Shown here: piece by piece, positions 3,113 through 37,300 of the stretch | How positions within the stretch are numbered: the first letter of the stretch is position 1 | Layout of the letters: each line of letters begins with the position of its first letter | Assembly (NCBI GenBank): GCA_008330645.1 | Contig: VLTN01000031.1 | Span: 124,001 to 188,000 of the forward strand | Direction: 5' to 3' | Length of the DNA stretch: 64,000 nucleotides | DNA from: Cafeteria roenbergensis | Taxonomy: Eukaryota > Sar > Bigyra > Bicosoecida > Cafeteriaceae | Position numbers and translations under genes: made by a program | Notes under the pieces: model-generated | Databases searched by the model: none | What the model was told of the DNA's origin: nothing | The model's input: only the letters and a program-made list of their open reading frames with translations

Positions 3113-6100
3113 TCACGCGGAGCAGCTGCCCCCGAACGCGGCCGCCGCCCCCACCGCCACCGCCGTGGCGCGCGCCACTGCCAGCGACTGCGACAGGCTC
3201 TGGACGGCGGCGTTTGCCCTCGTTGCGCCTGCAAGGCTCGCCCGTGCCTCTCCCAGCAGCGGGCGAACTGGCCTGAGAGCTGCCAGCGCCGACAGCAGCT
3301 GCCTTCCGGAGGCGGACAGCGCGGCGGCCTCCGCTCCGGGGCGTTCCGCTCCCGCCCCCGCCCTCGGGGCCGGGGCGAGCGGGGATCCGCCCTGCAGAGC
3401 TCGCATGCGCTGGCCCAGGCCCCGGCCTCTGAGCGACGCGGCCTGCCGGCGCGACGCCGCCGCCGCCACGCGCCAGGCGTCTTCCCGCTGCCCCGATGCC
3501 GCCCCGCCGCCCAGAGCAGCGTCGGCCCGCTCTGCCCCTGCCGCTGCAAGCGCCCCGCCCCCGACGCTCTGACGGCGCGAGCCGGCGCCTCCGCCCCGCC
3601 CCTCCGCCAGCAGCGCTGCCGCCCTCTCCTCCGCCTTGGCCGCGTCCCTCCGAGCCGCCGCGGCCGCCTCCTCCGCCTGCTTGGCCGCCCTCACCGCCGC
3701 CTCCAGCTCGGCGTCGGCCCTGGCCGCCTTGGCCTTGGAGGTCTGCTCCTTCCGGCTCAGCAGCTTGGCGCGTGCCTTGAGCACGCGGAGGTCCTTCTCC
3801 GCGGCGGTCAGCTGGTGCGACAGGTCGGCCTGCAGAGCCATGGAGGCGGCCAGGCGGCTCGCCAGCGACGACGATTCGGCCACCCGCTCGCGCGAAGCGG
3901 CACACTGCACCAGCAGGGGCGAGAGGCCCCCCGGGCGGGCCGATCCTTCCCCGGGGGCGGTTTCGCCTCCGCCTGCGACCTCGTCGTCGTCGCCGCCACC
4001 ACTGCCGCCTTCGGCGTCGGCCGCCGCGGGGCCCAGTGACCAGGCCCCCTGGGGTCCCAGCCACGCGGGCCGCTGGCAGGCGGCGAGGCCGTCAAGGACG
4101 CAGCGCCGCAGCGAGTCGGCGCCCGGGCAGCCGGAGGCAGCGGCAACTTCGCGCGCGCCGCTGTCGCTCGCAGCAGCATCAGTGTCGGCCTCGCCAGCAC
4201 CGGCAGCGGGCGCTCTCCCGTCAGAGGCCGCCCCGCCGTCCCCGTCAGCTGCCGGCTGCACTGCCGCCACGGCCGCGGCCAGCGCAGCGGAGGGGGCCTC
4301 GCCCCCCCGCGATGCCTCTGCCACCGCCGCCCACAGCCGGCTCGTTCGCAAGCCCGGCGCGTCGAACGGCTCTGCCGTGCCAAACCTGACCTGGAGATCG
4401 GCTGCCTCGTCCTCCGCGTCGACAGAGCCGACAGCGAAGCACTGTCCCGCGTCGGGCCGGGCGCCGTCGGACACCGAAGCGGCCGAGTCGGCTTCCGGGC
4501 CAGAGCCAGCGCCAGCGCCAGCGCCAGCGCCAGCACCGGCACCGGCACCGGCACCGAGCGCCGCCACCGCCGCCCGCAGCGCCAGCTCCAGCTGGCCGTC
4601 GCCCGCCCCGTCCAGCGCCAGCGCACGGGCGCACATGCGGCCGCAAGCAGCCACCACAGCGCTGGCCCCCACCACGCACCCAGCCCGCCACGCCTCTGCG
4701 CCGGCCGCGCTGCAGCCCTCCTCCGTCCCAGCCGACCCGCCGCCGCCGGCACTGCCGCCGTCGCCGTCGCCGTCGCTCCCAGCGGACAGCGGGCTGAGTG
4801 CCGCACGCACGGCCCCCGACACCGCATCGATGTTCCGGCAAATATCACTGGCAGAGCCGCCCGCCAAGCCCTCGATGGACGACATTGCGCGCCGCAGCGC
4901 GTCGGTGGCGACGCCGTCGCTCTCCGCGCCGGATGATCGAGCAACGCCAGCCAGTGCTCTGGCGACGGAGGCCGAGACCAAGCCCTCCAGCGCGGCAGAG
5001 CCGGACGAAGTGTCAGCTGACACCCCCCATGCCTCGGCCAGAGTGACGCCGCCCGTGGCAACTGCAACCGCATCGCCTGCTGCGCCGGCCAGCGACTCCG
5101 CTGCCGCCGCCACGTCTGCGGCGGCGCGAGCAGTTGTGCTGGCGCTGACCACGCCGCCGCCTGCGGCGCTGCCTCCGAGGAGGATGCGCCTCCCGCGTCG
5201 CACCTCGGACCCTGCCACAAGCAGAGCCGGAAGCAGGCACGCAGCCGAAACCGCGGCCCGCATGGCAGCCGCCCGCTCTCCCGGCCACGCCTCCCGGGGC
5301 GCTGGCCCGCCCGCCCCGGCGGCCGCCGCCGCGGCGTGCATGCCTCCGAGCAGCACCCGCCACAGCTCCTGCCTGGCGCGGCGCTCAGCCTCGGCCGACC
5401 GGTAGAGCACCGGCAGAGCCCGCAGCACCAGCGGCGCCGCGTCGCTGGAGCCAGCCGCCGACGCCGGAACCACCGTCCAAGCCCCAGAGGCCTCCGACCG
5501 CGCCCCCGCCAGCTCCACCGCGGCCCGTACCGCCTGCGAGCGCAGGCGCCCCTCCCTGGCCGCCGCCGCTTCCAGGGCGCGCATGGCATTGGCCGCCCTC
5601 TCTGCGATGCGCCGCGCCCCCGCGGCCCGCTCGGAGGCCTCCGCCCCGCCCTCCGCCGCGAGCCCTCGCAGCTGCTCCACCTCCGCCTGCGCCAGAGACG
5701 CCTCCTGCTGGGCAGCGTGCGCGCGCGCCTCCGCAGCCCGCCGCGCCGCCGCCTCCGCCGCGGCGGCCGCGGCCGCCCGCGCCGCCGCCTCCTCTGCCTC
5801 CAGCGCGCGCGCGGCCGCCGCCTCCTCCGCCGCCGCCAGCTCCCCCTCCATCTCCTCGCTCGCCTGCAGCAGCGCCGACAGGGTCGCGTTCTCCTCCCGC
5901 AGCTCTGCCGCGGTTTCGCGTGCCATGAGTTGCTCGTCGGCCATCGTCTCCACGACGGCCTCCAGCCCCTCGGCCGACTCGACACGTTCCCGCAGCTCGT
6001 CCACGGCAGCGCGCAGAGCCGATAGGTCGCCCTCGAGAGACGTCGCTCGCGCCGCTGCCTCCGCGCGCTTCGCCTCGGCCCTGCTGGCGGCAGCTGCTGC

Positions 6101-9043
6101 CCTGTCGGCCTCCTGCCTGGCCCTGGCGGCGGCGGAACGTTCCTCCGACAGGGCCCCACGCAGTTGCACGTTCTGCTCCAGCAGGGCGGAGCGTGCGCCC
6201 GAGCCGCCGCCGCCGCCAGCACCGCCGCCGGTGCCGCCGCCGCCGGTGCCGGCGCCGCCGCCTGAGCTGGGGCTGCCCTCGGCCGCGGGGGCCTCGTCCG
6301 CCGCCATGACCGCGTCTCTCAACGTGGCGGCCTCCTCCTGCGCCGCCGCGAGCGCCTCCCTCGCCTCCTCCAGCTCCAGCTCCATGTCCAGCGTGCTCTC
6401 CTCAAACCTGTCCGCGCGGGCTCGCTGCTCGGCCGCTGCGGCCGCGGACTCCTCGGCTCGCGTCTCGGCAGCCGCCAGCTCGGCGCGAGCCTCGCTGAGG
6501 CGCCGCTTCGCCGTCGCCGCCTCTGCGCGTGCGGCCGCAGCGTCCTTCACCGCCGACGTCTCGGCAGCTCTGCTCACGGCGGCCGCGGCTGCACCGGCAG
6601 CACCGCGGGCACGGGCGACGTCGGCCTTTGCTTGCTCCACTTCGCGCCGAAGCTCTGCCACTTCGAGCTCCGCCGCCGAGGCGCGCTCCTCCGCCGTCGC
6701 CCGCCCCGCCTCCGCCGCGCTCGCCACCTCCTCGGAGGCAGAGAGCTCTGCACGGGCCTCCTGCAGCTCTGCCAGCGCGCGCTCCGCCTCGTCCATCGCT
6801 TGCGAGGCGTCGGTCGCGCTGGAAGCGGCTTCTGCCTCCGCGGTTTCGGCACGCGAAACCGCTGCTTCGGCCTGGGCCTTGGCCTCTGCGGCCTGCTGCT
6901 GGGCCGCCGCCAGCTCTGCCGCCCGCTCTGCCGCCTCGGCACGGAGCTTGTCGCCAGCCGACGTCAGCCGGCTCACCTCTGCCGCCAGCTCCTCGGCCCT
7001 GGCAGCGGCGGCCGCAGCCTCCTCCTTGAGCGCGCTGAGCTGGCCGCTGACGTCCCCAGCGGCCGCGGTGCTCTGCCGCCGCGCCGCCCGCGCCGCCGCC
7101 GCCGCGTCTCTGAGCTCCGCCGCCGCCGCCTCCGCCGCCTCCGCCCTCCGCTGCGCTTCGGCGGCCTCCGCCTGCGCAGCCGCTGTCCCCGCTGCCGCCT
7201 CCGCGCTGGCCTCCTTGGCAGAGCGAAGCGCCTCACGTAGCTCTGCCAAGTCTTCACCGGCTCTGCCAGCGCTTGAGTCGGCGTCCTTCCTGGCCTTTGC
7301 AAGCTGGGACCTCACTTCGTCGAGCTCTGCCCGAAGTCGCTCGTTGGTTCCCCGGGCCTCCATGCACTCTTCGGCGGATAGTTCCGCCGCCTGCATTGCC
7401 TCCTCCGCGTCCTTCAGGTTCGCTGCCGCCGTCGCCTTGGCCGCCTCTGCCTCCGCCCGCGCCGCTTCGAGCGACGTCTCCAGCTCCTCCACCTGCACGC
7501 GCAGGGCGGCTGCCTGCGCGGCGCTGCCGCCCACAGACACCCGACCGGCCCCGCCGCCGCCGCCGACGGAGGCGCGCCCGCCGCCGCCGCCGCCGCCCCC
7601 ACCGCGGATCGACGGCCGCGGCGGGCGGGGAGGCTGCGCCGGCAGCGCCTGCGGCGACGTGGCTCCGCCTGGCAATGCGATGCCGCTGGCACCGCCCTCG
7701 TCCTCGTCGTCACTGGGATCGCGAATGCTGCCGTCGTCGTCGTCGTCGTCGTCGTTGTCGTTGTCGCCTGCTGCGATTTTCCCTGTGGTTGCATCACCAG
7801 CGAGGCTTGGATCCTTCCCGTCAGCATCGTCAACGTCGTCGCCGCCGCCAACGTCTTCGTCTGCGTCGTCGTCGTCGTCGTCGCCCACGATAGCGGCTCC
7901 GGGTTCGCTGTCGGCGACTGACCCGCCGCCGATGCTGCCGCGACGGCCAACCGACCCGCCGCCGATGCTGCCGCGACGGCCAACCGACCCGCCGCCGATG
8001 CTGCCGCGACGGCCAACCGACCCGCCGCCGATGCTGCCGCGACGGCCAACCGACCCGCCGCCGATGCTGCCGCGACGGCCAACCGACCCGCCGCCGATGC
8101 TGCCGCGACGGCTCACTGACCCGCCGCTGACTGACGTGCGACGCCCTGCCGCTGCGGCGGGCCCGTCAAGCGCCTCCTGGCGGGCGGCTCTGCCAGCCGC
8201 GCTGTCCCTCCTCCTCGCAGCTGCTCTGGCGCCGATGCTGTCGCGACGCGCCGCAGTCGCAGCCGCCCCTGCGCCGCCCACGGACGTGCGTCTGCCGGCG
8301 GCCGCCGCCACGCCCGCCCCGCCAGGCCGCTGCGCCTCCGCGGCCGCCGTTTTGGTGCGCTCCCTCAGGAGGCGGCGTCGCTCCTCGATCGCCTGCCGCT
8401 TCGCTGCCGCAGATCCGGGCGTGGCAGCAGCGCCAGCTGGGCCGCTCGCTGCCCCCGCGGCCGGCCCAGCGCTGGGTGTGGCAGGCGGGCGCGCGCTCGG
8501 CGGAATGGACGGCTTGGACTGATCGGCGACGAGCATTGCCATGCTTCGGCGGCAGAAGACCCCGTGCGAGGGCGCGCACGAGAAATAGCGAACTCCCTTG
8601 TGCTCGCCGTCGTGCCGCCCCTCCGGCGCGTCCAGCTCCATGCCGAGCCACTCGCCCTTGGTAGACTGCGCAGGCACAGGCGCGGGCCATCGGTTGCGCG
8701 CGGCGCAGTGGCATGGGGCTGGAGGCCCCTGGCTGCTGACGGCCGAGTGCGGAGCAAATTTGGACTCGGCAAAATGGCGGCTGCTTGCACTCACGCCGAG
8801 CTGGCCGATGTAGCGGCACACTCCGACCTTTCCCGACTTGACTGTGACGATCCGGTCCCCCAGCTGCGACCACGGACAGGCAGGGCGCGGGGACAGCAAG
8901 CGCGGGATGGCGGCGGGGCCAAGCGAGGCGGGGGCGGCCAGTGCTCGGTTAACGGCGCAGGGACTGCGCAGCAGTGCCGCGCGCTGAGCGCTCACCCGGA
9001 TGGCCCCATCGGCGGTGGCGTCGCTACTAGCGGCAGTAGCCAT
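3113..9043 (-). CDS. DCTN1: Dynactin subunit 1 (p150Glued) homologue, CAP-Gly plus coiled coils
   Basis: Exons 9043-8996, 8863-8795 and 8665-3113 give 1,889 aa (human p150 is about 1,280). The start at 9043 has A at -3 and G at +4. A CAP-Gly domain occupies about residues 17-86: GVCRYIG is joined by splicing to GEWLGMELDAP, then the microtubule/EB-binding motif appears as GRHDG (55-59), then GVRYFSC. Next come an 11-aa Ser/Arg tandem repeat (about 225-289), an acidic Asp-rich stretch, a long coiled coil (about 430-1,100), a globular-helical region and a C-terminal coiled coil (about 1,645-1,710). The segment around VVETMADEQLMARETAAELR matches the p150 coiled coil. Known role: links dynein to cargo and microtubules. 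Both introns (132 and 129 nt) are stop-free and a multiple of three. Family call is strong; the exact start is likely. Confidence 0.85.
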   Translation of the reverse strand: MATAASSDATADGAIRVSAQRAALLRSPCAVNRALAAPASLGPAAIPRLLSPRPACPWSQLGDRIVTVKSGKVGVCRYIGQLGVSASSRHFAESKFAPHSAVSSQGPPAPCHCAARNRWPAPVPAQSTKGEWLGMELDAPEGRHDGEHKGVRYFSCAPSHGVFCRRSMAMLVADQSKPSIPPSARPPATPSAGPAAGAASGPAGAAATPGSAAAKRQAIEERRRLLRERTKTAAAEAQRPGGAGVAAAAGRRTSVGGAGAAATAARRDSIGARAAARRRDSAAGRAARQEALDGPAAAAGRRTSVSGGSVSRRGSIGGGSVGRRGSIGGGSVGRRGSIGGGSVGRRGSIGGGSVGRRGSIGGGSVGRRGSIGGGSVADSEPGAAIVGDDDDDDADEDVGGGDDVDDADGKDPSLAGDATTGKIAAGDNDNDDDDDDDGSIRDPSDDEDEGGASGIALPGGATSPQALPAQPPRPPRPSIRGGGGGGGGGRASVGGGGGAGRVSVGGSAAQAAALRVQVEELETSLEAARAEAEAAKATAAANLKDAEEAMQAAELSAEECMEARGTNERLRAELDEVRSQLAKARKDADSSAGRAGEDLAELREALRSAKEASAEAAAGTAAAQAEAAEAQRRAEAAEAAAAELRDAAAAARAARRQSTAAAGDVSGQLSALKEEAAAAAARAEELAAEVSRLTSAGDKLRAEAAERAAELAAAQQQAAEAKAQAEAAVSRAETAEAEAASSATDASQAMDEAERALAELQEARAELSASEEVASAAEAGRATAEERASAAELEVAELRREVEQAKADVARARGAAGAAAAAVSRAAETSAVKDAAAARAEAATAKRRLSEARAELAAAETRAEESAAAAAEQRARADRFEESTLDMELELEEAREALAAAQEEAATLRDAVMAADEAPAAEGSPSSGGGAGTGGGGTGGGAGGGGGSGARSALLEQNVQLRGALSEERSAAARARQEADRAAAAASRAEAKRAEAAARATSLEGDLSALRAAVDELRERVESAEGLEAVVETMADEQLMARETAAELREENATLSALLQASEEMEGELAAAEEAAAARALEAEEAAARAAAAAAAEAAARRAAEARAHAAQQEASLAQAEVEQLRGLAAEGGAEASERAAGARRIAERAANAMRALEAAAAREGRLRSQAVRAAVELAGARSEASGAWTVVPASAAGSSDAAPLVLRALPVLYRSAEAERRARQELWRVLLGGMHAAAAAAGAGGPAPREAWPGERAAAMRAAVSAACLLPALLVAGSEVRRGRRILLGGSAAGGGVVSASTTARAAADVAAAAESLAGAAGDAVAVATGGVTLAEAWGVSADTSSGSAALEGLVSASVARALAGVARSSGAESDGVATDALRRAMSSIEGLAGGSASDICRNIDAVSGAVRAALSPLSAGSDGDGDGGSAGGGGSAGTEEGCSAAGAEAWRAGCVVGASAVVAACGRMCARALALDGAGDGQLELALRAAVAALGAGAGAGAGAGAGAGAGSGPEADSAASVSDGARPDAGQCFAVGSVDAEDEAADLQVRFGTAEPFDAPGLRTSRLWAAVAEASRGGEAPSAALAAAVAAVQPAADGDGGAASDGRAPAAGAGEADTDAAASDSGAREVAAASGCPGADSLRRCVLDGLAACQRPAWLGPQGAWSLGPAAADAEGGSGGGDDDEVAGGGETAPGEGSARPGGLSPLLVQCAASRERVAESSSLASRLAASMALQADLSHQLTAAEKDLRVLKARAKLLSRKEQTSKAKAARADAELEAAVRAAKQAEEAAAAARRDAAKAEERAAALLAEGRGGGAGSRRQSVGGGALAAAGAERADAALGGGAASGQREDAWRVAAAASRRQAASLRGRGLGQRMRALQGGSPLAPAPRAGAGAERPGAEAAALSASGRQLLSALAALRPVRPLLGEARASLAGATRANAAVQSLSQSLAVARATAVAVGAAAAFGGSCSA
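4504..4558 (+). repeat. Hexanucleotide microsatellite in dynactin CDS
   Basis: About five GCCAGC units grade into CGGCAC-type units. On the coding (minus) strand they encode an alternating Gly-Ala run. The frame is kept because the unit is a multiple of three. Confidence 0.8.
7918..8115 (-). repeat. 33-bp tandem repeat, about six copies, in dynactin CDS
   Basis: Near-identical 33-bp units encode an 11-aa repeat of the form GGGSVGRRGSI. Each copy contains RRGS, a match to the basophilic (PKA/PKC-type) consensus. The repeat lies just after the CAP-Gly domain, where animal p150 has its basic, phosphorylated Ser-rich region. Near-identity between copies points to recent expansion. Confidence 0.9.
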
Positions 9044-9370
9044 GCTGCGCCGGCCCGCCCGCTCCAGTCGCCGTCGTCCCGGGGAGTGGGTCCGGCGCCA
9101 GCGCGGCGCCCTGCCCGCCGACTGCAATCAATGTTTGTCGGTCAGCAAATACTGTGCGTTGGAGCGAGGCGAGCGGCGACAGCGCAACGCCCACCCGAAT
9201 CGCGTGCTGCGGCCGCGTTGCCCGAGCCGGGGCGCGACCCGTTTGCAGGGCGGTCGGAGAGGCCTGGCGTCCTCTCGGCGCCTGCGGCGTGATCCGCCTG
9301 CCCTCGCAGGACGTTTCAGCAAGCGCGCCGAGCAACGACGGCAGCACTTGCACCTGCGGCTGGCATCGAC
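9044..9370. promoter_or_regulatory. Putative bidirectional promoter (dynactin / RS-rich protein)
   Basis: This is a 327-bp gap between divergent ATGs at 9043 and 9371. I see no TATA box. The role is inferred from layout only. Confidence 0.35.
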
Positions 9371-12300
9371 ATGGCGGGGACAGTATTGTCCCCGGGCCCG
9401 GCGGGGACGCCGTTCCTCGAAGCCGTTGACCTGGGGGACGCAGACAGCGACGCCGCCTTTCTCGGAGCGGGCGTGGGCGGCGGTGCTGCGACGGGAAACG
9501 GCGCGCACTCGGCCATGAGGAGCAACGCTGCGGTCGGGACGGCCAGCACGCCGCGACAGGCGCGGAGCCGCAACGTCGACCGAGGGTCGCCCGCTGGGCC
9601 CAGCAGCAGGCTGGACGGCACTGCCGGCGCGCCCCACTCGTCGGCAAGTCGGCTTCCGTCGTTTCGCCCGACCTCGGCGCCCGGCGGGGACGCCAAGAGC
9701 ACAATGTCCGATACCCTCGACGCGCCCGCGCGAGGCATCGCGGGCGCGCCCCTCGCGTGGCACGACCCTGCGGACGAGCGCGGCTCAAACCTCGGGCCTG
9801 GATCAGGGCTGCATCCGGGGGCGGCGGGAAACGGCGGCCCGCCGCAGTTGCCGCGCGGCAGCGTCGTTAAATCGGCCAGCGGGCGGCGGCACGCCGATCC
9901 CGGCCTGCAGGGCCAAGAGCCCGGCACGGAGGCCTGGGCCAGCGGGTCTGGCCGCCACGCCCCCGGGCGCTCGGCGGAGGGGCGGGCCCGCTCGCCGCGC
10001 GCCCAGGTGGCATGGGGGGCCGGCGAGCGGCAAGAGGCCACGATGGAACTGCGGTCGCACCGCGACGCGGTGGAGGGCCACGTCGAGCGGCTCCAGGCGC
10101 TCCGGCGACAGCTCGATTCGGCTTCGCGGGGCTCGCGACGCACCCCCGCGGACGGGGGGGGCGCGGGGTTCGGGGGCCAGCCGGCCGCCTCGCCAAGGGG
10201 GGCGCCATGGCTCGCGCAAGCGGTTCCGGGGCCGATGCTGCCGCAGGGGGCGGACGCGCCCCGCGTCACCACCGCCCCCTCAGCGCCGCGCGTGCTCTCG
10301 GGGCCGGTCCGGCCCTCGCCCGGCTTGCACCGGCCGGTGCGGGTGTCGGCTGCCGCAGCCACCCCCGAGCGAGAGGGCGCTGCCCGCGGCGTGGGCACTG
10401 GCGCTGGCGGCGAGGACGGTGGCGGGGCCTATGGCCAGCAGCAGGGCGCGCACTACGCGCATGAGGAGCCACGCTGGCCCACGCCCCCCCTGCTGGACAC
10501 GCCAGACAGCGCCTCTCACCAGCAACAACAGCGACAGCACCAACAGCAGCGCCACGACGAGCAGCGCAGCCACCGGCGCAGGCGGCCGGACCACGGCGTC
10601 GCTGACGACGTCGACGTCGCTCACCGCGAAGGGCGCCGCCGATCGTCTGGCCACGCCAGCCGGCACCGCCATGGCTCGGATCAGCGCCGCCCACACCACC
10701 ACCACCACCACCACGGCGACTACGACCAATACGGCCACGACGACGACGATCCCTCCGTCGAGGCCGCCCTGGGGGTGTTGCGGCGGGAGCTGGCCGCATC
10801 CCCCCGCGTCGGGGAGCGCCCGCGCACCAGGGAAGTGAGAGACGCCATCGCGGCGCGGGTGGACACCCTGACCAGGGCTATGCTGCGGCTGCTTCACGCC
10901 AGCCCGCAGGGTGTCACCAGGCGCGGGGACCCCAGAGGCGGCGCCGCGGCGCGGGAGCGGGGCGGCGGCGGGGCCCTCAGCACCGCGGCGGACGACGCCG
11001 AGGGTCTCGAGGACCTTCGGGCAGAGCTCGCAGGCCTGATGGAGCGGCCTGTGCTGCGGCTCGCCGTGACCGGCTCGAGGACTGCGTCGCGCGTCGAGCG
11101 CGGCGGGGCCGTGGCGCATAGTTCAGCGGACGACTATGGTTCAGAGTTGGACGATGAGTACGACGAGGACGACTTCGAGCCGACCCCAACGAGCCACCGC
11201 GCTCGCGCCAACAGGGCGAGCCCTGCTGCCGGCGCCTCTGCCGACGGATACCGCCAGGCTGCCGCAAGCAGCCACCTCCGGCGCCAGGACGGCAGAGCCG
11301 ATCTCGAGGCCGAGGCAGGCAGGGCGGCGTGGGGCGGCGGCGACGAAGTGGGGTCTCCCGACGCGCGACGGGGCGGGCGGTGGCTGCCGCCCGCCCTGCG
11401 TTCGCCAGCCGCCCGCGCCCCCCGGGGGGGACAGCGCCGCACCACGGGCAGCGCGGGCGGCGCCATCCTCGGCGACCCAGACATGGGCCACTCGCCGTCC
11501 CCGCCAACAGCAGCAGCAGCAGCAGCAGCAGTAGCAGCGGCGGCAAGTCGGGGAGGCGGCAGCGGACCGAGCGGGCGCCCTCCCCGGCACGGCCTCGCTG
11601 GCGACCAGAGCGACGACGTCGGCGGCGCGGGCGCCGGATCCACGCCCCCGCGGGGCCGACGCCGGAAGGCCTCTCGATCCAGGAGCAGGCGGACCCCCAC
11701 CGGCAGCCGCGCGGGCGCCGTTGGTCGATCGCCGGGCTCTCGGCGCAGGGGAGTGAGTCTCTCCCGGGCAGCCCACCAGAAGGCTCTGCTAGCAGCCAGG
11801 GCGGAGGGCAACGCGGCAGCGATCGAAAGACACCGCAAGGCGCTTGAGCGACGCAGCCCGACCAAGCGCGGCCGGAAGGCAGCTCGCAGCAGCAGCCGAG
11901 CCAGGCGGGCGGGCGCTGCCGGTGGCAGAGCCAATGGCAGAGCCGCTAGCAGGAGGAAGGCGTCTGGGGAGGCGGCGCGCCGGCGGCAGCTGCAGTCCCA
12001 CCTGGGGGCGATCGAGGAGGCGCGGAGAGACAAAGCCGCCGCTGAGCGGGCGGAGCGGCGTGCCGCGGCGCGCAAGACGAAGCAGCGGCGCGACGAGCTG
12101 GCCGAGCGAGCCAGGCAGCGGCGGGCGGACCGACTAGCGGAGGCTAGGGCGCAGGCGGGCGGGGGGGGCTCTGCCGCGGACAGGTCCCCCTCGAAGGCGC
12201 GCTCGCACGCGTCGCGGGGCGCATCGGTTTCACGAAACCGCTCGGCGCCCCGGCGGAGGGCTGACAGCCGCGGCCGCAGCCGCAGCCGCAGCCGTGCCGG

Positions 12301-18594: not shown

Positions 18595-18881
18595 GCGCGC
18601 CCGCGGCCTCGTGGTGGCGAGGGAACGCGGGCCGGCCCCGTGCCCTGCCGCCTTGCTCGCCCCCCTTCGGCCACCGTGCCCCCCTGCGTGATCGTGCGTG
18701 TGCCTGTGCGTGTGCGCGCGCTCCAGCCGCCGCTTTCTTTGCGTTTCCTCTGCCTTCCAACGAACGCGCGCTGTGACGTGCGTTGCAGCTCGCAGGCGCG
18801 CACGCAGCCAGCGCCCAGCAGCCTCTCACACGCCCGAGGGCGAACGCATCGCGGGGCCGAGGCGCTCGGCCGGCCGCCGCC
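18595..18881. other. Convergent intergenic region (RRB1 / microcephalin)
   Basis: A 287-bp tail-to-tail gap with a short TG/CG-rich purine-pyrimidine stretch (about 18690-18720). No gene seen. Confidence 0.35.
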
Positions 18882-18988
18882 TCACACCAGCTGCTCGCCG
18901 ATGTCCTCCACCACAGGGCCGCGCGCCGCCGACGGCGCAGCGCCCCGAAGCGACGACCGCCGCCTCCTCCTCCCCAGGGACGCCCGCC

Positions 18989-19035
<47 letters not shown>

Positions 19036-25154: not shown

Positions 25155-25191
<37 letters not shown>

Positions 25192-27960: not shown

Positions 27961-30632
27961 TCAGCGGCGGTCGCCGTCCTGGTCGGGGTCGTAGGAGCCG
28001 CCGATGAGCCGGCCATCGGGCCCCACGCGCATCACCTCGGGCTCGACCTCCTCGTTGGCGGTGGCGCCCTGCGCCTCACCCTGCCCCTGCCCCTGCGCCT
28101 GCTCCCTGGCGAACCGGTCGACGTCTGCCTGCAGGGTGGCAGGGTCCTTGAGCAGCTCGTCCTGCATCACGTCCTCGAGCGCCATCTTGGAGTCCCTGAA
28201 GGCAGCCTCGCCCATGGGGACGTGCCGCTTGGAGGTGCCCGCGTGGTCCTCGCCGATGTCGGCCGGCTCGGCGACGCCGTCCATGGCGTTCATGACCGTT
28301 GAGAGGAGCGCGTTGAGGCGCGGAAGCATGGACCGCGCGTCGTCCAGCAGGCCGGCCGCCACCAGGGCGTTGTCGAACACCTGCTCGGCGACCGCCTTGG
28401 CGACGGAGGGCTGCGAGGCGCGCTGCTTGTGGAGCGCCACGATGACGGGGTGTGAGGGGTTGATCTCCAGCGTCTGGCGGGGGAGCACCTGCTCGGCCGC
28501 CGAGGGGGACTCGCTGTCGCGCTTGTGCGCGTCGAGCATCTTCATCATGCGGCGGACGGAGGCCGACTCGTGGTCCACCACCACGGCCGGGGTGCTGCGC
28601 AGGCGGTCCGAGGCGCGGACCACCTTGACGCGGCCGGACAGCGCCTCGCTGGACAGCCACTCGCCGAGCTCTGCCACCTGCTCCGGGGAGAGGGCGGGGG
28701 AGGAGGAGGAGGCGGCGGAGTCCTTGCTGGAGTCGCCGTCGGCCTTGCTGCCGTCGGCCTTCTTGTCAGCGGGCTTGGGGGGCGACAGGCCGAGGTCGCT
28801 GGCCTCGGCCGTGACGACGGACCGGCCGTTGTACTGGCCCAGCTGCTGGAAGACAAAGTCGTCGATCGACGAGTACGCGTAGAGCACCTCGACGTCGCGG
28901 CCGCCGGCGCCGGCGCCCTTGAACGCCTCCATGTACGGCGAGGCCTCGGCCAGGCCGCGGTGCGGCGCCACGATGTAGTAGAGGCGCTCCTGGCCGGGGG
29001 GACAGCGGGAGATGTACTCGTCGAGGGTGGTGAGCTCGCCGGCGGGCAGGGCAGAGGACTCGAAGAGCATGAGGCGAGCGATGTCCGGCTGGTACGGCGC
29101 GTCGGAGCACACGCCCTCCTTGAGGTAGGTGCCGAATTCGGCGAAGAACTTGGAGTAGAGGGCCCTGTCGCGGCGGAGCTCGCTCTCCAGGAAGCGCAGG
29201 ACGCGGCGGGTGAGGACGGACTTGATACGGAGCATGAGCGCGGTGTCCTGCATCGACTCGCGGGAGATGTTCAGCGGGATGTCCTCAGAGTCGACCACGC
29301 CCTTGAGGAAGCGCAGCCACTCGGGCATGACGCCGGACTCCGCCTCGATGAGCACCTTGCGGCTGTAGAGGTCCACGCCCGGCTTGGCGCGTCCGAGGCC
29401 GAAGCCCTCCTCGTTGAGCTCCGGGACGAAGAAGAGGGCCCGCAGCTCCAGGGGGGCGTCGGCCGCGAAGTGCAGGCGCATGAGCGGGGAGGAGTACTGC
29501 TGGCCCGTCTTGAAGCGGAAGAAGCCGAGGTACTGCTCCTCCGTCACCAGGTGCTTGGGCTCCGCCCAGATGGCGCCCACGGTGTTGACCTGCTCGCCGC
29601 CCACCAGGATCGGGAACCCGACGAAGTTCGAGTGGCGCTTGACGACGTCCTCCACCGTCTTGGTGCGGGAGAAGTCCTTGGCGTTGCTGCGGAGCTTGAG
29701 GACGATGGTGGTGCCGCGCTTGAGCCCGTCGGCGCGGGCCAGGCTGTACTCGCCCTCGCCCTTGGAGCGCCACACATGGCCAGGGGCGTCCGGCCGCGCG
29801 CTCTTGGAGTACACGGTGATCTCCTCGGCGACCATGAAGGCGCTGTAAAAGCCCACGCCGAACTGGCCAATGAGGTTGGCGCCCACGTCCTTGGAGCCCG
29901 CCTCGCGCGCCTGCTTGACAAAGGCCTTGGAGCCGGAGTGCGCGATGGTCCCGATGTTCTCCATGAGCTCCTCGCGCGACATGCCCACGCCCGAGTCCGA
30001 GATGGTCACCGTGCCTGCCTCCTCGTCGGTCGAGATGCTGATCTCGAGGGGGCGGTCGGGGTCCTCCACGGGCTCGCCGGTGGTCTGCATGTGGCGCAGC
30101 TTCTCCAGGGCGTCGGAGGAGTTGGAGATGAGCTCGCGCACGAAGATGTGGCGGTCGGTGTAGAGGGCGTGCGCCACAATGTCCAAGAGCTGACGCGTTT
30201 CCGTCTGGAACACGTGGTTCTCAGCGGCTGCGGCGAAGGCACAGAGCGGGGAAGCACGGAGATGACGTACACGGTGGGACCGGCGCGCGGCACGCACGGG
30301 TCGGGCACTGTGGCGCCGGGGGTCGGCGACGGGAGGCGCGCGCATTTGCTCCCGACCACGTGGCCGCTCGGCACGGCACGCCGCACAGCCGCCCCCCGCG
30401 CTCGCGGGCGAGCCGGAGCAGCGCCCAGGGCGCGCGCGACCTCACGGCCGGTCTCGGAGGCCAGGGGCTCCTTCGTGGCGGACGACGCCGCCGCGGCGGC
30501 GCCGGACGCGTCCGCGGCAAAGTGGCGCTTGGGCGCCGCGCTCGCGGCTGCCGCCATGGCCCTGGCCAGAACGGGCGGGCGCGCGGCGGACCGCGACACG
30601 AAGCTGCGCGCAGCGCGGACGGACGCTGCCAT
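27961..30632 (-). CDS. TRAP1: TRAP1, mitochondrial HSP90 chaperone
   Basis: Exons 30632-30446 and 30227-27961 give 817 aa (human about 704). Exon 1 encodes a classic mitochondrial presequence (MAASVRAARSFVSRSAARPP, then KRHFAADAS). The GHKL ATPase domain shows RELISNSSDALEKL (~90), DSGVGM (~140) and GQFGVGFYSAFMV (~181); the middle domain shows LYSRKVLIEAESG and NISRESMQD with the catalytic-loop Arg. The C-terminal domain has LEINPSHPVI and DNALVAAGLLDD. The sequence is TRAP1/HtpG-like and lacks the charged linker and MEEVD of cytosolic HSP90. Odd: a Lys/Asp/Ser-rich insert (about 28680-28800) and an extra C-terminal tail of about 80 residues. Divergent with the SET gene. Confidence 0.93.
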
Positions 30633-30872
30633 GGTCTCGCCGGAGAGTGCCCGCCCCCTCGCGACGCACGCCGAGCCGGGCAGAGGCAGCCGCCGCACCC
30701 TCCAAATGCGGGCCCAACTCGGGCAGACTTGGGGAGCGAATCCCGGCCCGCAGAGTCGCAGCGCGGCTCTGCCATCCGGCTGCTGCGGGTCGGGGCGGCG
30801 GGAGCTCGCGGGCGCGCGTGTCCGGCGGCAGGGGCTGCTCGCGCCGCACAGATCCCCGGCAGCGGCCGGGGC
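30633..30872. promoter_or_regulatory. Putative bidirectional promoter (TRAP1 / SET protein)
   Basis: A 240-bp gap between divergent starts. It contains one copy of the dispersed motif GGCTCTGCC at 30765-30773. No TATA box seen. Confidence 0.35.
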
Positions 30873-32426
30873 ATGGCAGGTCTGGATGTGGCGCCAGACC
30901 TCTCGCAGGGAGACGTGATTCGCGCCTCGCGCACGCACGAAGGCGCCGTGCTGCTGCGGGTCTCGCTGCCGGCGCCTGCGCACCGCGTCCTCGTCGCGGG
31001 CGAAGCCGTGCCGGCCGGCAGGGTCGTGCTCTCGGTGCCGCAGCAGGCAGCGCTCTCGACGCTGACGCTCGACTCGCACCCGGTGAGGCGTCGGGCCAGC
31101 GAGCGGCAGCGCCGCACGGATCACTGACTTTTTTGAGCGCGCAGCGAGATGCCCGTCAGGCGCTGCGCGCGGCGTTCTGCCCCGCGCCGCTGCCCTCCCT
31201 CCCGTCTGCGACGCGAATGCGCGAGGCCCGACCGGTCGACGCGCCCTACCACCGCGGCGCGCCGTTGCGGGGCCGGCTCGCGCCTGCTGTGCAGCTCGCT
31301 CTCGAGTTTCTCTTCCTCGCCACGCAGCGGCCACTCGCTGCCCCTGAGCTGCCGCCGCGCCCCCCAGCCCGACCCACTGCCCGCCCTGCGTTCCTGCTGC
31401 ACCCCGCGGCTGCCGCAGGTGTTTCCGATTCTGGAGCGTGTGCGGGCCGCGCGCGAGGACCTTGCGGAGCTGATTCGCACGCCCGACGTGCACATGACCG
31501 TGGCGGTGGTGTACGAGGCGCTCTTCGGCGCCCACGCGCAGGCTACCGCCCCCAAGCGGCGTCGCGCGTGGCACTCGGTCTGGCGCGCCGCGCTGGGGGG
31601 CGCCTGTCCGCCCTTCGGCAGCGCCGTGTTCGCCTCGCCGGCAGAGCGTGCGTCCCTCCCCGCGCACCCGGCCCGGTCCAGCGCCGAGGCCGCCAGGGCC
31701 CTCTGCGACGGCGCCTACGCCGCCTTGGTGCCGGCCCTGGAGGCTGACTGCGCCGCGCGACCCGCCAACGCCGGCCTCTTCCGACGAGACGTTCTCACCC
31801 CGGACCGGTGGAGGTGGGCCTGGGCGGTGCAGGCCGCCGCGGGCATTCCCGTGCAAGCGGCGCTCACCTCGGACCAGGCATCGGCACTCCACGCAGCGGC
31901 CGAGGCCGACGCCGCCGCCGCGGCCCCCCACGACGCACCGGGCGGCGCCACCGCCGCCAAGCGCAGGCGACGCCGCGGCGGCCGCAAACCCAGCAAGCCG
32001 CCCACCGCCGCGGCAGCGGCCGCGACCCCGGCGCCGGCACCGGCTCCATCCACTTCGTCTGGCTCTGCCGGCAGAGCTGGAGCCGCCGCGTCGGCCCCGA
32101 GGCACGCCATCGTCGGCCGGCAGCTCGTGGCCCCGCTGCTGTGGGCTCTGCCCAGCGTCGACGTCGTTCCCGGCGCCTGCCCCTGCTGGCTGCGGCCCAA
32201 TGCCGCGGCGGGCACGCTGGAGGTTGTCGCGGGCGAGGCCGCCTCGGCGGGGCAGCCCCTCGGGCTGTCGCTGGGGGGCGATCGGCTGGCCCACGCGGCG
32301 GTGTGCGTGCGCGGCGTGGTGCCCGTGGCTAGGGCGGTACACGCCGTTGCATTCAGCATCGGCCCCGAGACGCCAGCCGCCGCCGCCTCCGCGCCGCCTG
32401 CAACGGGGGCCTCTGCCAGCGGCGCC

Positions 32427-32458
<32 letters not shown>

Positions 32459-33776
32459 TGGGCCCGCGGCGCTGTCGCTCCCCGAGGCTGACCAGCGCGC
32501 CCTGGCCGCGGCCGCTGCGGTGCCCTGGGAGCACTGGCCCCCTACCGCGGCGGAGGTCCGCTCCGACCAGTCCGTCAGCCCCGCCATCATGGGAGTGGCG
32601 CGCGCTCTCGTCGCGGACGCGGCCGACGCCGGGCTCTGCAGGGAGGGGCACATGCTCTTCTCGGCCGCAGTCTCGCGCCGCAACGAGGCGGCGGCGCTGC
32701 GGCTGCTAGCGTCGGGGGCGATGGCCGAGGCGGCCCGGGTCGCCAAGGCCGCCCCAGCGCCGCCGGCCGTGCCTGGCGCGGCCCCCGCGTCCGCTGGAAG
32801 CGCCGGCAAAGCCGCAGCGGCCGCGGCCGGCAAGCCAGCGTCGGCTGGCAGCGACGCGGAGGAGAGCAAGCACGCAAGAGCGCCGGCAGAGCCCGCGGCG
32901 TCGGCAGAGCCGGCCGGGCGGGAGGCGTCAGCAGCGCTGGCAGGGTCGACCAACGCCGAGGACACGACCGTGCTGCTTGCGAGGGCGCAGCTGTGGGGCA
33001 CCGCACGCACGCTCATCGCCAAGGCGGCGGCCAGGGCTGGCGTGGGCGAGGGGGCCACGGCGCGCGCCACCGAGGTGGAGCGGACCGCGACCCAGCCGCC
33101 CATCGTGCCGGCAGCGGCAGGCGGCGCCGGGGCGGGAGCGGGCTCTGGTGCGGGCGCGGGCGCGGGCGTGGGCGCGGGTGCGGTCTCCAGCTCCGCGAGC
33201 GTCTCCGGCGCTGGGGGGCCGTGGGCATCGCCGCCCGCGGCGCTGGGCGACAGGCACTTGCGGTCTGGGCTGGGCCGCGGCCTGCTGCTGCGCCGCCTGG
33301 GGTACAACGAGGCCAGGGCGGGCGCTCGCATGACGCTGCTTCACTTTGCGTCCGCGGCGCTGGACGCGGCTGCCGACATGGACAAGAAGGCCGCGGGGGA
33401 GGGCGGCGCCTCGGCCGACGTGGTTGCGGCCCGTGCCAGGGCTGCGCTTCGAACGAGGAAGGCGACCAGCGCCGCCATCGCCGACCTTCGGGCCAAGGCG
33501 GAGGCCAAGGCGCGGCGGCTCCTGGCGGAGACCCAGAGCGAGACCGCGCGCGCGGCGGGCGAGGGCGCGGAGGCGGGCAGGGCCAGCGGGGCGGGCGGCA
33601 GCGGGAGGGGGTCCTCCAGCGTCTTCGCCAGGGCGGCGGCCACGGCAGCTCTCGCAGATTCACCCGCACCAGAGGCGGCGCCAGCAGCTGCAGATCCGGC
33701 GGCGGCTGTGCCCCGCGACACGGAGGCCGGCGGCGCAAGCCCCAGCGATGCCGTCCTCAAGGACGAGTCGGCTTGA
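30873..33776 (+). CDS. SETD3/Rubisco-LSMT-type protein with degenerate SET core
   Basis: Exons 30873-31082 and 31419-33776 give 855 aa (intron 336 nt, GTGAGG...CCGCAG). The N-terminus carries the SET-N signature (VPAGRVVLSVPQQAALS). The order then follows the SETD3/SETD6/LSMT fold: a helical insert (HMTVAVVYEALF, SVWRAALGG, FGSAVFASPAERASL), LTPDRWRWAWAVQ (~200), then RQLVAPLLWALPSVDVV (~305) and QPLGLSLGGDRLAHAAV (~350). The usual D-x-x-NH motif and the Tyr of the YG motif are missing at these places, so methyltransferase activity is doubtful. A Rubisco-substrate-binding-like helical part follows, then a long Ala/Glu-rich tail. Lys-rich KRRRRRGGRKPSK interrupts the SET domain. Family inferred from motif order; orthology unresolved. 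Confidence 0.6.
32425..32458 (+). repeat. (CAG)n microsatellite, encodes poly-Ala
   Basis: About eleven CAG units read in the GCA frame in the SET-family gene, giving a run of Ala after the SET-like core. Confidence 0.85.
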
Positions 33777-33894: not shown

Positions 33895-33941
<47 letters not shown>

Positions 33942-34382
33942 GTGTCACCCACACCCTCGCTCGCTTGCTGGCTCGCTCCTGGCTGGCGCGTGTGCCCGGC
34001 CAAGCGCACGCTTGAAGCAGTGTGGTACCGCGTCGCCTGTGAGTGCTTGTGTGCGTGCAAGGCGGCTGGAGCGGTCTGCAGCGCGCAGCGCGCAGCGCGG
34101 AGTCGAGCAGCACAATTGACGCGCCACGGCGGTGGCAAAGGGCGCAGCCACGCCTGTGCCCGGAACAGAGCAGTGGGTCGAACAGAGCAACACTCAGCCA
34201 GAACACGCAAGCCGCCCAGCGGACAAACGGCAGGAGCGGGGACAGGCAGCCAGAGCCGCGGCGCGGGCTCGCCGGAGCGAGGGCGGTCCCTCCTCGCGCT
34301 CGCCCCTGCTCCCCCCCCCCCCCACGTCATCCTTCCGGTACGGTGTGGGGGGGGAAGGCGGGAAGGACAGCGGGCAGCGGGC
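33777..34382. other. Convergent intergenic region with CT microsatellite and C-run
   Basis: A 606-bp tail-to-tail gap. Contents: a (CT)n tract at 33898-33943 interrupted by two G, and a run of about 13 C at about 34311-34323. Otherwise no gene or RNA is seen. Confidence 0.6.
33898..33943 (+). repeat. (CT)n dinucleotide microsatellite
   Basis: A polypyrimidine array in the 3' region of the SET-family gene. Confidence 0.95.
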
Positions 34383-37300
34383 TCACTCGGGCCGGGCGGG
34401 GAAGGGCCGGACCACGCGAGTGAAGCTGGACCCGGGTCCGACGTCGGCGGGGTTGCGCGCGCTGCCGGTCATGACGCGGACGTCGACCTCGCCGCGGCCC
34501 ATGCGCTGGCGGCGCTGGCGGCGCTCCGCCTCGGACACGACGCCCAGCAGCATCTCCTCCTCGGTGAGCTGCGTGCCGTAGGGGTCGGGGTCGCGCTCCC
34601 CCTTGCGGGGCCGCCTGGCGCGGCGGCCGGCCCGCTTGGCGCGCTTGTCGGCTCTGCCTGCGCGGCCTCCCGTGGCGTCCGTGGCGGCAGCGGCAGAGAC
34701 GAGCTTGGTCATCTCCTCGTCGTCCTCCTGCATGAAGGCCGCCATTGCGATCTCCTCGGCCGTCATGGCGGGGGCCTCGGCCGCGGCAGCGGCGGCCTCG
34801 TCCGCCGCATCGCCTGCCGCGCCCCCTGCTGCTGATGTTGCTGCCGCGGCGGCGGCGGCGGCGGCGCGGTCGGCATCGCCTCCGGCCATGTCAATGGCCG
34901 CGGCAGAGGGCAGCAGGACGTTGTCGGCCCAGCCGATACCGCCCGCCGAAAGCTCGGTGGCCCGGGCCTCCATCTGGGAGTCGACGTTGGAGCTGCCAAG
35001 CACGATGCCGCGGTGCGCCGACGTCTCCGAGAGGAAGGCCGCGCGGCGGGTGCCGCTGATGCCGGGGGGCGGGTGCACGTAGAGGAGGTCCCCGTTGAGG
35101 AAATCCTTGAGGACGACGCGCGAGCCGCGGGGCTGGTCGGTGCCGGCGTGGGTGGAGGCCATGTAGCCGCGCATCTTGCAGAGGGCGTCGAGCAGCTCGC
35201 GCGCGTGGGGGGGGCGGTGGGGGTCCTCGACCATGCCGGGCTTGCGAATCTTAATGCCGTACTTGCCCTCGAGGATGTGCCGGGGGATGCGCTGGCAGAC
35301 GAGCGAGACGGGCGGGATGTGCTGACGCATCTGGTCCACGGGAAGGACCCCGGCGATGACCATCTCGGCGCGGGTGGACACGAAGGAGGGGAACACGAGG
35401 CCGGGGCAGTCGCAGAGGGTCATGTCGTCGCTGAGGTGGAGCGTCTGGAAGTGCTTCGTCTTGCCCGGGGTCGCGCCCACGCCCGCGCGCTTCTGCCTGT
35501 GGGAGGAGGCGGTGACCCCCAGGAGGGCGTTGATCACGCTGCTCTTTCCCACGTTGGGGTAGCCGACGGTGCCGATGGTGAGCTTACGGCCCTCGACCTC
35601 CTCCAGAGCCGCCGAGGCCGCGGCGGTGTCGCTCACGTCAGGGGCCCAGCGCACGCCGTTGCCGATGCCGGCGGCGGCCGCCTCGGCCTCCTCGGCGTCC
35701 TTGCCGCCCGGCATGTAGAAGCCCACCTTGCGCTTCGGCCTGACGCCGCTCGCGGCGCCGTCGGCGGCAGAGGCAGCCGACCCAGCCGCCGCCTCGGCCG
35801 GCTCGTCGTCCTCGCTGTCGCCCTCGAGCCCGTCGTCGCCCCTGGCCGCCGCTGCGCCCTTCCTGCCCTCCTCCTCCTCCTCCTCCTCCTCGGGCGCAGC
35901 CCGCGCGTCGCTCCGCAGCGCCTCCGACGAGAACCCGCCGAACTCGTCCGCCTCCGCCTCCGCGGCGTCCAGCGCCTCCAGCCGCCGCCGGGCCTTGTCC
36001 GCCTCCTCCTGCAGCCTGGCGCTCGCCTTCTCGGTGACCTGGCCGGCCGTCACGTGCGCGCGAAGCCAGCCGTACCGGTCGCGGAGCATGTCCAGCAGGC
36101 CCTCGCGGTCGAGCACCTTGCACGCTGCGCGCAGCTCCGGGCTGGCGCCGAGGGACTCCGCGGCGGCCTGCTCCTCGGCGGCCTCCGTGGCGATGCGTGC
36201 CTCGGCGGCGGCCGCCTCGGCCTCCAGCTCCGCCAGCGCCGCCGCGTGGGCGCTGCGGGAGGCGGCACTCATGTCCGCACCCTTGAGCAGCGCCCCGCCC
36301 GCGCCGCCGGCCGTGGACGAAACGTCACTCGCCACCGAGGCGCTGCCGTCCTCGTCCTCGTCCTCGTCCGAGGCGGCCCCGTCTCTGGCGTCCGCCTCGG
36401 CCTTGGCCTCCGCGCCCTCGTCCTCCGCCTCGTCGTCGCTGCCATCCGCCACGGCGCCGCTGCCCACGCTGGCGCGGTCGGCGTCGATGCGCAAGTCGGC
36501 GCCCTCCTCGAGCGCCGAGAAGACGCCCATGCCCACGCGCGCCGCGTTCCTGGCCTCGTCCTCGAGCTTCTTGAGCTCCGCGTGCGCGGAGAAGAAGGCG
36601 AAGGCCACGCCGCGCTCGCTGAGGTGCCGGCCCCACTCGAGGCGCTGGCGCGGCGAGAGGTAGTCGGCCTTGTTGACCAGCAGCAGGGACTGCTTCAGGG
36701 GGTTGATCTCCCGGGCGTAGTCCTCGATGTCAGGGCAGCGGTACAGCAGGGGCTGGCGGGCGTCGACCACCTGCACGACCACGTCGGCGCGCTCCACCAC
36801 GCGCCAGAGCTGGCGCCACATCTCGATGTTCTTCTCAAACGGCGTCACTGCCACGCCGCCCAGCTCGCCCCCGGCCCCGGACGCCACGGCGGAGGTGTGC
36901 TCCTCTTCCAGGTCCGCCAGGGTGCGGCGCCAGCGGAGGAAGGCGTTGTTCTCGTTGCGGTGCAGCTCCTTGGCGGAGATGCCCTCGTGCCAGGCGGGCC
37001 TGCGGGGCACGCGCAGCGGCATCACGCCCGACTCGTCGGTCACGTCAGGCTTGGCGGCCTCGGCCGCGGCGCCGGCGCCCATGGCCACAATCTCGCCGTC
37101 CGAGCCAAGCATGACCAGCTCGTCGTGCTGGCCGCCGACGCGGCGCTCCGCGGCGAAGGAGCGCTCGGCCATGGTTGCTGCCGCCATAAAGTCCTCCACG
37201 GTGTTGGTGTCGGTCACGCTGATGAGCCGGGAGCCGGCCGTTTCGAGGCCCATGGACTCGAGGTCCGGCCTGCGAAAGAAGGACGCGCGGGGTCGCGCCG

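What the first reader, a model, noticed from the sequence alone, without database searches (positions are those of the whole stretch)
3529..35000. Highly iterated short motif GGCAGAGCC across genes, frames and strands
Seen: about 55 copies of the core GGCAGAGC/GCTCTGCC in about 31 kb, against only about five in 35-64 kb. A simple estimate for an 8-mer at about 70% GC gives about five per 64 kb on both strands. The motif is read as GRA, GSA, AEP or ALP depending on frame, and also occurs outside genes (16639, 30765, 62491). It often forces AGA or TCT, which look like non-preferred codons here. That points to a DNA-level cause, such as a HIP1-like iterated element, a protein-binding site or a mutational/insertion footprint. 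It is densest in disordered coding regions, so tolerance of insertion may shape its distribution.
Basis: partly seen in the sequence, partly recalled or inferred. Interest (0 to 1): 0.72.

Follow-up and report, generated by a model that had tools for sequence, protein, structure and literature searches.

The report
Repeated DNA words in protist chromosomes
A single-celled eukaryote carries about eleven thousand exact copies of one nine-letter DNA word, plus a second such word, concentrated in large stretches of its chromosomes inside and outside genes alike, a pattern known in bacteria but not one I could find described for a nucleus.

Summary
GGCAGAGC occurs 64 times in the window, 58 of them at 3529-35000. 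Genome-wide GGCAGAGCC has 10,998 copies against 994 for the reversed word. In sampled DNA it exceeds Markov and synonymous-codon nulls, in coding sequence on both strands and in non-coding DNA. The genome is eukaryotic and matches in size the Cafeteria burkhardae BVI assembly (inferred).

New here: (1) a second word, CGAAACCGC, 3,668 against 908, follows the first. (2) Density varies by large domains: rich stretches hold about 15 copies of GGCAGAGC per 10 kb in coding and non-coding DNA alike, others intermediate or near-chance numbers. (3) Mutated versions do not accumulate at interior positions 1-4 and 6. (4) Words abut: 112 exact palindromes GCTCTGCCGGCAGAGC.

Insertion tolerance does not explain the distribution. 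Best reading: target sites of a sequence-specific DNA-binding or repair activity, kept exact by selection or biased conversion, working like cyanobacterial HIP1 or Neisseria uptake sequences, but in a nucleus. The protein, the function and the domain mark are unknown.

The parts
3529..34658 (.). word-rich stretch of the window: 58 of its 64 copies of GGCAGAGC/GCTCTGCC and 8 of its 9 copies of CGAAACCG/CGGTTTCG; more copies lie to the left of the window (C31:108-120 kb)
34659..64000 (.). word-poor stretch: 6 copies of the first word (43645, 43983, 58464, 58502, 60279, 62491) and 1 of the second (48240)
5902..5918 (-). composite site CGAAACCGCGGCAGAGC: second word directly abutting the first
   Evidence: C31:129902-129918
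32062..32077 (.). abutting divergent pair, 16-bp palindrome GCTCTGCCGGCAGAGC
   Evidence: C31:156062-156077
25755..25780 (.). convergent pair GGCAGAGCC-ttcgaagt-GGCTCTGCC
7217..7247 (.). convergent pair; with the neighbouring bases it has 11-bp complementary arms CTTGGCAGAGC / GCTCTGCCAAG
32885..32910 (+). direct pair of the first word, 18 bp apart
22152..22177 (+). direct pair of the first word, 18 bp apart
28668..28675 (-). copy inside the HSP90/TRAP1-like gene (27964-30345 -), read V-A-E-L at an ungapped position
17921..17928 (-). copy in an RBBP4-like WD40 gene (16975-18591 +), read G-S-A in or beside a loop that is longer than in the solved relatives
18485..18492 (+). second copy in the RBBP4-like gene, read G-Q-S, outside the printed alignments
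16636..16643 (+). copy outside called coding sequence
30766..30773 (-). copy outside called coding sequence
62491..62498 (+). copy outside called coding sequence
3958..24879 (.). second word CGAAACCG/CGGTTTCG at 3958, 5246, 5911, 6841, 6854, 12233, 15148, 24872

Best explanation
GGCAGAGCC and CGAAACCGC are short DNA target sites, iterated over the nuclear chromosomes of a GC-rich protist (probably Cafeteria burkhardae). They are recognised in double-stranded DNA by one or two sequence-specific DNA-binding or repair activities. Exact copies are favoured, either by selection for the site or by biased repair or conversion that turns near-matches into matches, and mostly inside certain chromosome domains tens to hundreds of kilobases long. 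Shown, in part on sampled DNA: the excess, its independence of strand and coding status, the sharpness, the second word, the shared domains, the abutting arrangement. Inferred: a binding protein, active maintenance rather than a very recent burst, and a domain-level role such as marking chromosome compartments or recombination domains.
For: Excess over reversed word and neighbours; highest observed/expected ratio of 1,260 same-composition 9-mers in the sample; beyond order 3-5 Markov backgrounds built with copies masked (86 against 10-11) and beyond synonymous shuffles; equal density in coding and non-coding DNA within rich chunks; little flanking information, so not part of a longer repeat; no surplus of one-mismatch forms at interior positions 1-4 and 6 (109 against 108.5), and none over all positions for the second word (71 against 70.2); second word independently enriched and co-distributed; 112 of 337 divergent pairs within 30 bp are exactly abutting and 13 of 100 listed second-to-first-word pairs have a one-base gap, 11 of these CGAAACCGC|GGCAGAGC.
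Against: No protein that reads the words has been identified. One-mismatch forms do rise at position 0 (61 against 25.0), position 5 (81 against 56.4) and position 7 (30 against 21.6), total excess 69.5 with a bootstrap range of 14-94; this could be partial decay or relaxed specificity. The same comparison for two reversed control words gave -1.5 and -27.5, so composition alone can shift it by some tens. Direct pairs within 30 bp (1,325) are twice the inverted ones (281 + 337) and short tandem arrays of the word exist, so local duplication also makes copies. A recent burst would also leave no decay products. Silent-site GC is the same around rich and poor coding segments (GC3 0.834 and 0.838), which does not favour a general GC-biased conversion in the rich domains. 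Chunks of intermediate density exist (5.6-5.7 per 10 kb), so domains are not simply on or off.
Confidence: 0.5

Rival explanations
1. A recent or ongoing mutational or templated process (short templated insertions, quasi-palindrome correction, slippage) writes these words without any function or binding protein.
For: Short tandem arrays with the word as unit (GGCAGAGCCAGC x3.2), direct pairs twice as frequent as inverted ones, a copy in or beside a lengthened loop of an RBBP4-like protein, abutting palindromes.
Against: Sharp word boundaries with little shared flank; three first-word copies and one second-word copy at ungapped positions of conserved families (the L-L-C-P and G-S-A-D alignments are weak); no decay products at most interior positions, which a long-running neutral process would leave; two unrelated words with the same domains.
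Confidence: 0.25
2. The words are meiotic or chromosomal marks of the kind of nematode pairing-centre motifs or dosage-compensation recruitment sites: clusters of one short site that give a chromosome domain its identity (analogy recalled; see Closest known systems).
For: Domain structure: on contig C1 the 50-kb bins hold 10-14 plus-strand copies of GGCAGAGCC in 0-200 and 250-300 kb and 0-1 over 350-600 and 750-1050 kb; two words share the domains.
Against: 88 of 143 sampled copies lie in called coding sequence, at the same density as outside; chromosome-end location is not established; no meiotic data.
Confidence: 0.15
3. The copies are remnants of a transposable or repeated element, or target-site footprints of one.
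For: Seven copies lie in a lower-GC repeated stretch on C31:101-109 kb, which has a weak integrase match; three to four of them are in hairpin context.
Against: Flanks carry little information beyond one or two bases; a 10-kb query from the dense region found only short, low-complexity coding similarity and no common element; few decayed versions.
Confidence: 0.06
4. Codon usage, low-complexity protein or GC composition produces the counts.
For: Rich chunks are slightly richer in GC (0.730 against 0.702) and encode more Ala, Gly, Glu and Arg.
Against: Synonymous shuffles, Markov orders 3-5 and reversed words do not reproduce it, and none of the 1,259 other permutations reaches its ratio; non-coding DNA shows it too; GC correlation is absent in 76 bins of the 19 loci outside C31 (rho 0.11, p 0.36).
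Confidence: 0.02

Closest known systems
Highly Iterated Palindrome HIP1 (GCGATCGC) and alternate HIPs of cyanobacteria (PMC4390886; abstract, section 2.6 and part 1 of section 3.4 read)
   Same: A short GC-rich word, in genes and between them; comparable density (that paper: about one per 1,000 nt; here 0.58 per kb for the 8-mer overall and about 1.5 per kb in rich chunks); near-misses concentrate at an edge and are scarce at most interior positions.
   Different: Eukaryotic nucleus; the word is not a perfect palindrome (GGC-AGA-GCC); two unrelated words; concentrated in domains; the methyltransferase families PF00145 and PF01555 gave no match in the genome.
DNA uptake sequences of Neisseriaceae and Pasteurellaceae (PMC1939737 abstract and outline seen; PMC2397512 in search listing only)
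   Different: No natural transformation is known to me for this protist; that abstract reports over-representation graded by similarity to the word, which I do not see at most interior positions; here coding DNA does not carry less of the word than non-coding DNA.
Chi-type recombination signals (recalled)
   Same: Over-represented octamers across genes.
   Different: Chi is strand-biased along replication (recalled); here both strands are equal genome-wide (10,543 and 10,375), though local strand bias was not tested.
C. elegans pairing-centre motifs read by HIM-8/ZIM zinc-finger proteins (recalled; papers only in a search listing)
   Same: Short sites clustered in large chromosome domains of a eukaryote.
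   Different: Those lie in few chromosome-end regions and mostly outside genes (recalled); here several domains per contig, coding and non-coding alike.

Membership tests
HIP-type iterated sequence | short word far above composition-based expectation genome-wide | tested here: met
   genome-wide against reversed word and neighbours; against Markov backgrounds in the sample
HIP-type iterated sequence | found in coding and non-coding DNA, any frame | tested here: met
   (one of six placements not distinguishable from chance)
HIP-type iterated sequence | perfect palindrome | tested here: not met
   GGCAGAGCC differs from its reverse complement GGCTCTGCC; only 112 abutting pairs make a 16-bp palindrome
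HIP-type iterated sequence | cognate DNA methyltransferase in the genome | tested here: inconclusive
   PF00145 and PF01555 no match; other methyltransferase families not searched
HIP-type iterated sequence | one-off forms concentrated at the ends of the word | tested here: inconclusive
   position 0 clearly and position 7 slightly in excess, positions 1-4 and 6 not, but position 5 also in excess
HIP-type iterated sequence | cyanobacterial genome | tested here: not met
   eukaryotic gene content
DNA uptake sequence | preferential uptake by competent cells | not testable with these tools
   needs an experiment
DNA uptake sequence | thinned in conserved coding sequence | tested here: inconclusive
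   coding equals non-coding density in rich and intermediate chunks, lower in poor chunks (0.7 and 1.6 per 10 kb); a handful of conserved-family copies only
Transposable element or MITE | shared sequence longer than the word, with flanks or ends | tested here: not met
   (143 copies and one 10-kb query)
Simple or tandem repeat | head-to-tail arrays account for the copies | tested here: not met
   after masking tandem repeats the word still ranks first among 8- and 9-mers; the direct pairs within 30 bp, 1,325, are few beside 20,918 copies
Chromosome-domain recruitment or pairing site | bound by a sequence-specific protein that acts on a chromosome domain | not tested
   no binding data

The most novel reading that the evidence does not exclude
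A eukaryotic nucleus carries a two-word, HIP-like code: exact 9-bp sites for a dedicated DNA-binding or conversion system are written by substitution into coding and non-coding DNA alike, in large chromosome domains, so that the genome is a mosaic of marked and unmarked stretches. The drive is strong enough to alter protein sequence, and near-matches are converted to exact matches.
Probability: 0.3. Interest if true: 0.88.

Novelty: new variant of a known kind. Interest (0 to 1): 0.72.

Why it matters
The cause of iterated short words such as HIP1 and uptake sequences in bacteria is still debated. A nuclear case with two words, a strong domain pattern and several sequenced strains would let selection, biased repair and drive be told apart directly by strain comparison. 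If the reading is right, a process blind to genes is editing protein sequence over much of this genome, and domain maps of a little-studied stramenopile can be read from DNA sequence alone.

Tried and rejected
Literal search for GGCAGAGCC in papers: 274 papers hold it, 20 listed, and those 20 titles concern unrelated genes and primers. Searches for a published iterated word in eukaryotes, protists or Cafeteria: 3 papers; 113 papers, 12 listed; 8 papers; nothing matching in the listings. The main text of PMC6972860 holds 'motif' 0 times (passages seen). Absence from print is claimed only for these searches.

Correlation with GC: present when C31 is included, absent in the 19 loci outside C31; not relied on. 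A fixed helical or dimer spacing: convergent pairs show no preferred gap by eye in the listing; only the abutting divergent arrangement stands out. Covariation of the bases flanking the word (-1 and +9), a sign of longer hairpins: none evident. Paralogue comparison: a 10-kb DNA search found only short coding similarity. CGAAGTG, seen beside several copies: no clear co-distribution (rho 0.32, p 0.10). Rfam: no match in the window. Kinesin alignment at a strict cut-off gave no match and was repeated with a looser one.

Limits: frame, neighbour and domain statistics rest on sampled stretches (264,000 to 307,728 bases of 36.3 Mb). The loci were placed by me, not at random; six lie on C1 and were chosen after its position list had been seen. 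L029 and L030 were picked because they were dense, L023-L028 came in as similarity hits; these eight enter but not 29, 41, 63 or 75. Rich and poor chunks (at least 4, at most 1 copy per 4 kb) were defined by the first word itself, so their contrast in that word is partly built in; the second word and the C1 map are the independent tests. Coding segments are my own calls, not annotation, and the Pfam comparison used 22 segments chosen by hand.
Full report
OBSERVATION. The window (64,000 bases, 72% GC) holds 64 copies of GGCAGAGC on both strands, 58 at 3529-35000 and 6 beyond. Genome-wide the 8-mer has 20,918 copies against 3,302 for the same word read backwards, the 9-mer GGCAGAGCC 10,998 against 994. 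Allowing one mismatch gives 57,402 against 27,892, so an average one-letter neighbour has 1,719 copies and the exact word 10,998.

ORGANISM. The genome has 36,303,456 bases in 167 contigs and plainly eukaryotic genes: TRAP1/HSP90, RBBP4-like, cyclophilin-WD40, CAP-Gly, BRCT, Kelch, Per1, kinesin, PHD, Surp and M16 peptidase in the samples. Size and contig number agree closely with the published assembly of Cafeteria roenbergensis/burkhardae strain BVI (36,327,047 bp, 170 contigs, 70.1% GC; PMC6972860, passages seen); most sampled loci have 69-75% GC. This identity is an inference; the rRNA search could not be run.

NULL MODELS. In 264,000 sampled bases GGCAGAGCC has the highest observed/expected ratio of all 1,260 permutations of its letters (79 against 13.1). 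Among 8- and 9-mers that are not simple repeats it ranks first. With copies masked before the background is estimated, 268,800 bases hold 86 copies against 10.3-11.1 expected at Markov orders 3-5; the 19 loci outside C31 alone hold 41 against 7.1-7.4. In 165,093 bases of called coding sequence, 49 copies against 6.3 +/- 2.5 after synonymous shuffling. By placement the 8-mer has 10/11/32 in sense frames 0/1/2 and 8/23/4 in antisense frames 0/1/2, against shuffle means of 1.15/2.52/7.68 and 2.98/4.42/2.49; four placements exceed each of 200 shuffles, one ties the highest, the last does not stand out. Non-coding DNA has 30 copies of the 9-mer against 4.4-5.6. The shuffle is well behaved: the reversed word gives 19 against 17.4.

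THE WORD. Flanks carry little information: some preference for C at -2 and -1, C or T at the ninth position, G at the tenth (143 copies). The letters around it are otherwise near background, so this is not a piece of a longer repeat. The word is a near-dyad, GGC-AGA-GCC, but among the 20 commonest GGCNNNGCC centres printed only AGA/TCT is strongly raised (79 against 13.1; the next, GGC/GCC, 66 against 45.1).

A SECOND WORD. Masked word counts also brought up CGAAACCG(C) (39 against 8.9). It too lies in coding and non-coding DNA (16 of 24 sampled copies in called coding sequence, in five of six placements) and exceeds synonymous shuffles (CGAAACCGC 12 against 2.5, highest shuffle 8). Genome-wide CGAAACCGC has 3,668 copies against 908 for the reversed word. 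Its density follows that of GGCAGAGC: rho 0.85 over 28 loci, 0.53 over 89 chunks of 4 kb, where of 560 same-composition words only an overlapping frame of itself does as well. From the position listings of contig C1 (first 1.2 Mb; plus-strand copies for the first word) the two words correlate at rho 0.47, 0.58 and 0.77 in 25-, 50- and 100-kb bins. In the window 8 of 9 copies lie in the first 25 kb.

DOMAINS. On C1 the 50-kb bins hold 11, 10, 14, 11, 1, 14, 3, 1, 1, 1, 1, 0, 2, 3, 7, 1, 0, 1, 1, 0, 0, 6, 2, 6 plus-strand copies of GGCAGAGCC, where about 1.0 is expected from the background; variance/mean is 5.1. In the sample, rich chunks have 149 copies of the 8-mer in 71,976 bases and poor chunks 16 in 146,697, the latter near the chance level of about 22 (scaled), with the warning that chunks were sorted by this very count and that rich chunks include loci picked as dense. 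In the 264-kb sample without those loci, coding and non-coding DNA have 15.5 and 14.6 copies per 10 kb in rich chunks, 5.7 and 5.6 in intermediate ones, 0.7 and 1.6 in poor ones. So the pattern is graded rather than strictly on/off, and it is not a matter of coding tolerance. Nor does it go with lack of a known domain: of 10 chosen coding segments with almost no copies 7, and of 12 chosen segments with copies 7, have no Pfam match at 1e-4. Coding segments in rich surroundings do encode more Ala, Gly, Glu and Arg, with the same silent-site GC (0.834 and 0.838).

HOW COPIES ARISE. Copies in proteins with solved relatives were checked. Ungapped: V-A-E-L in TRAP1, L-L-C-P in a kinesin (weak local alignment of 5.7 bits), G-S-A-D in a WD40 repeat (likewise 5.7 bits), and R-N-R-V of the second word in the same kinesin (34.2 bits). 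In or beside a lengthened loop: G-S-A-G in the RBBP4-like protein. Outside the printed alignments, hence untested: one copy in the RBBP4-like protein, one in the kinesin, and eight first-word and three second-word copies in the WD40 protein. Substitution is thus likely for several; some of these could be chance occurrences.

DECAY PRODUCTS. If copies arose and decayed neutrally at steady state, one-mismatch forms should be about as numerous as intact ones (my estimate). In rich chunks, with 149 intact copies, interior positions 1, 2, 3, 4 and 6 give 109 one-mismatch forms against 108.5 scaled from poor chunks, where neutral steady state would add about 93. Position 0 (61 against 25.0), position 5 (81 against 56.4) and position 7 (30 against 21.6) are raised; total excess 69.5, bootstrap 95% range 14-94. 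The second word has 71 against 70.2. Two reversed control words give -1.5 and -27.5, which shows how far composition can shift the measure (all). So most of the centre is either actively kept or young. HIP1 shows an edge bias of deviations too (PMC4390886 section 2.6).

ARRANGEMENT. Within 30 bp there are 1,325 direct, 281 convergent and 337 divergent pairs. Of the divergent pairs 112 are exactly abutting, GCTCTGCCGGCAGAGC, against 225 over the other 30 gaps. CGAAACCG followed by GGCAGAGC within 30 bp occurs 137 times (control 2), and 13 of the 100 listed have a one-base gap, 11 of them CGAAACCGC|GGCAGAGC. Among the listed direct pairs, spacings of 9, 12, 15 and 18 are common by eye, and there are real short tandem arrays.

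MECHANISM. The best reading is a sequence-specific activity that reads these words in duplex DNA and whose presence favours exact copies within certain domains. That may be purifying selection for binding sites or a repair/conversion bias. Methylation of the HIP kind is less likely, as the families PF00145 and PF01555 gave no match in this genome although the same searches ring in 10 and 11 of 14 control genomes; other methyltransferase families were not searched. A purely mutational writer and a chromosome-mark function are the main rivals.

NOVELTY. Iterated words are known in bacteria. In the searches made I found no such system described for a eukaryotic nucleus, nor for Cafeteria. I file it as a new variant of a known kind: it works like HIP1 and is not a member.

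Noticed in passing
L017 (C31:100001-110000), about 1.0-9.9 kb: A lower-GC inverted pair of related segments with a weak phage-integrase-type (tyrosine recombinase) match (18.2 bits, below the 27.1 cut-off); GCAGAGC-type words occur there as short hairpins such as GCAGAGCCGAAGCGGCTCTGC. Possibly remnants of the Ngaro-type retrotransposons described for Cafeteria (PMC8547959, passages seen).
   Followed up: partly
sampled loci: TGACGTCAT (CRE-like, name recalled) is about nine-fold over expectation (12 against 1.3); 6 of 6 copies of TGACGTCA in the 264-kb sample fell in called coding segments.
   Followed up: no
sampled loci: TGAGCGAC/GTCGCTCA (40 against 13.1) is raised but does not follow the two words' domains (rho -0.13).
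   Followed up: no
sampled loci: GGCAAGG/CCTTGCC and GAACTCG/CGAGTTC are commoner in word-poor chunks (93 in about 147 kb against 11 in about 72 kb, and 31 against 0); GACTCGGA falls where GGCAGAGC rises (rho -0.43).
   Followed up: no
window 48169-58797 (-): One open frame of 3,542 codons with Kelch and TIG matches; a large word-poor gene with two first-word copies near its 5' end (58464, 58502) and one second-word copy near its 3' end (48240).
   Followed up: partly
window about 5610-7890: Coding stretch with short DNA similarity (92 matches for the 10-kb query, mostly 65-85% identical) to places all over the genome, apparently Ala/Glu-rich coiled-coil coding repeats (coiled coil is my reading).
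   Followed up: no
L029 7248-7285 (C5:762248): Short tandem array GGCAGAGCCAGC x3.2: the word can also multiply by slippage.
   Followed up: no
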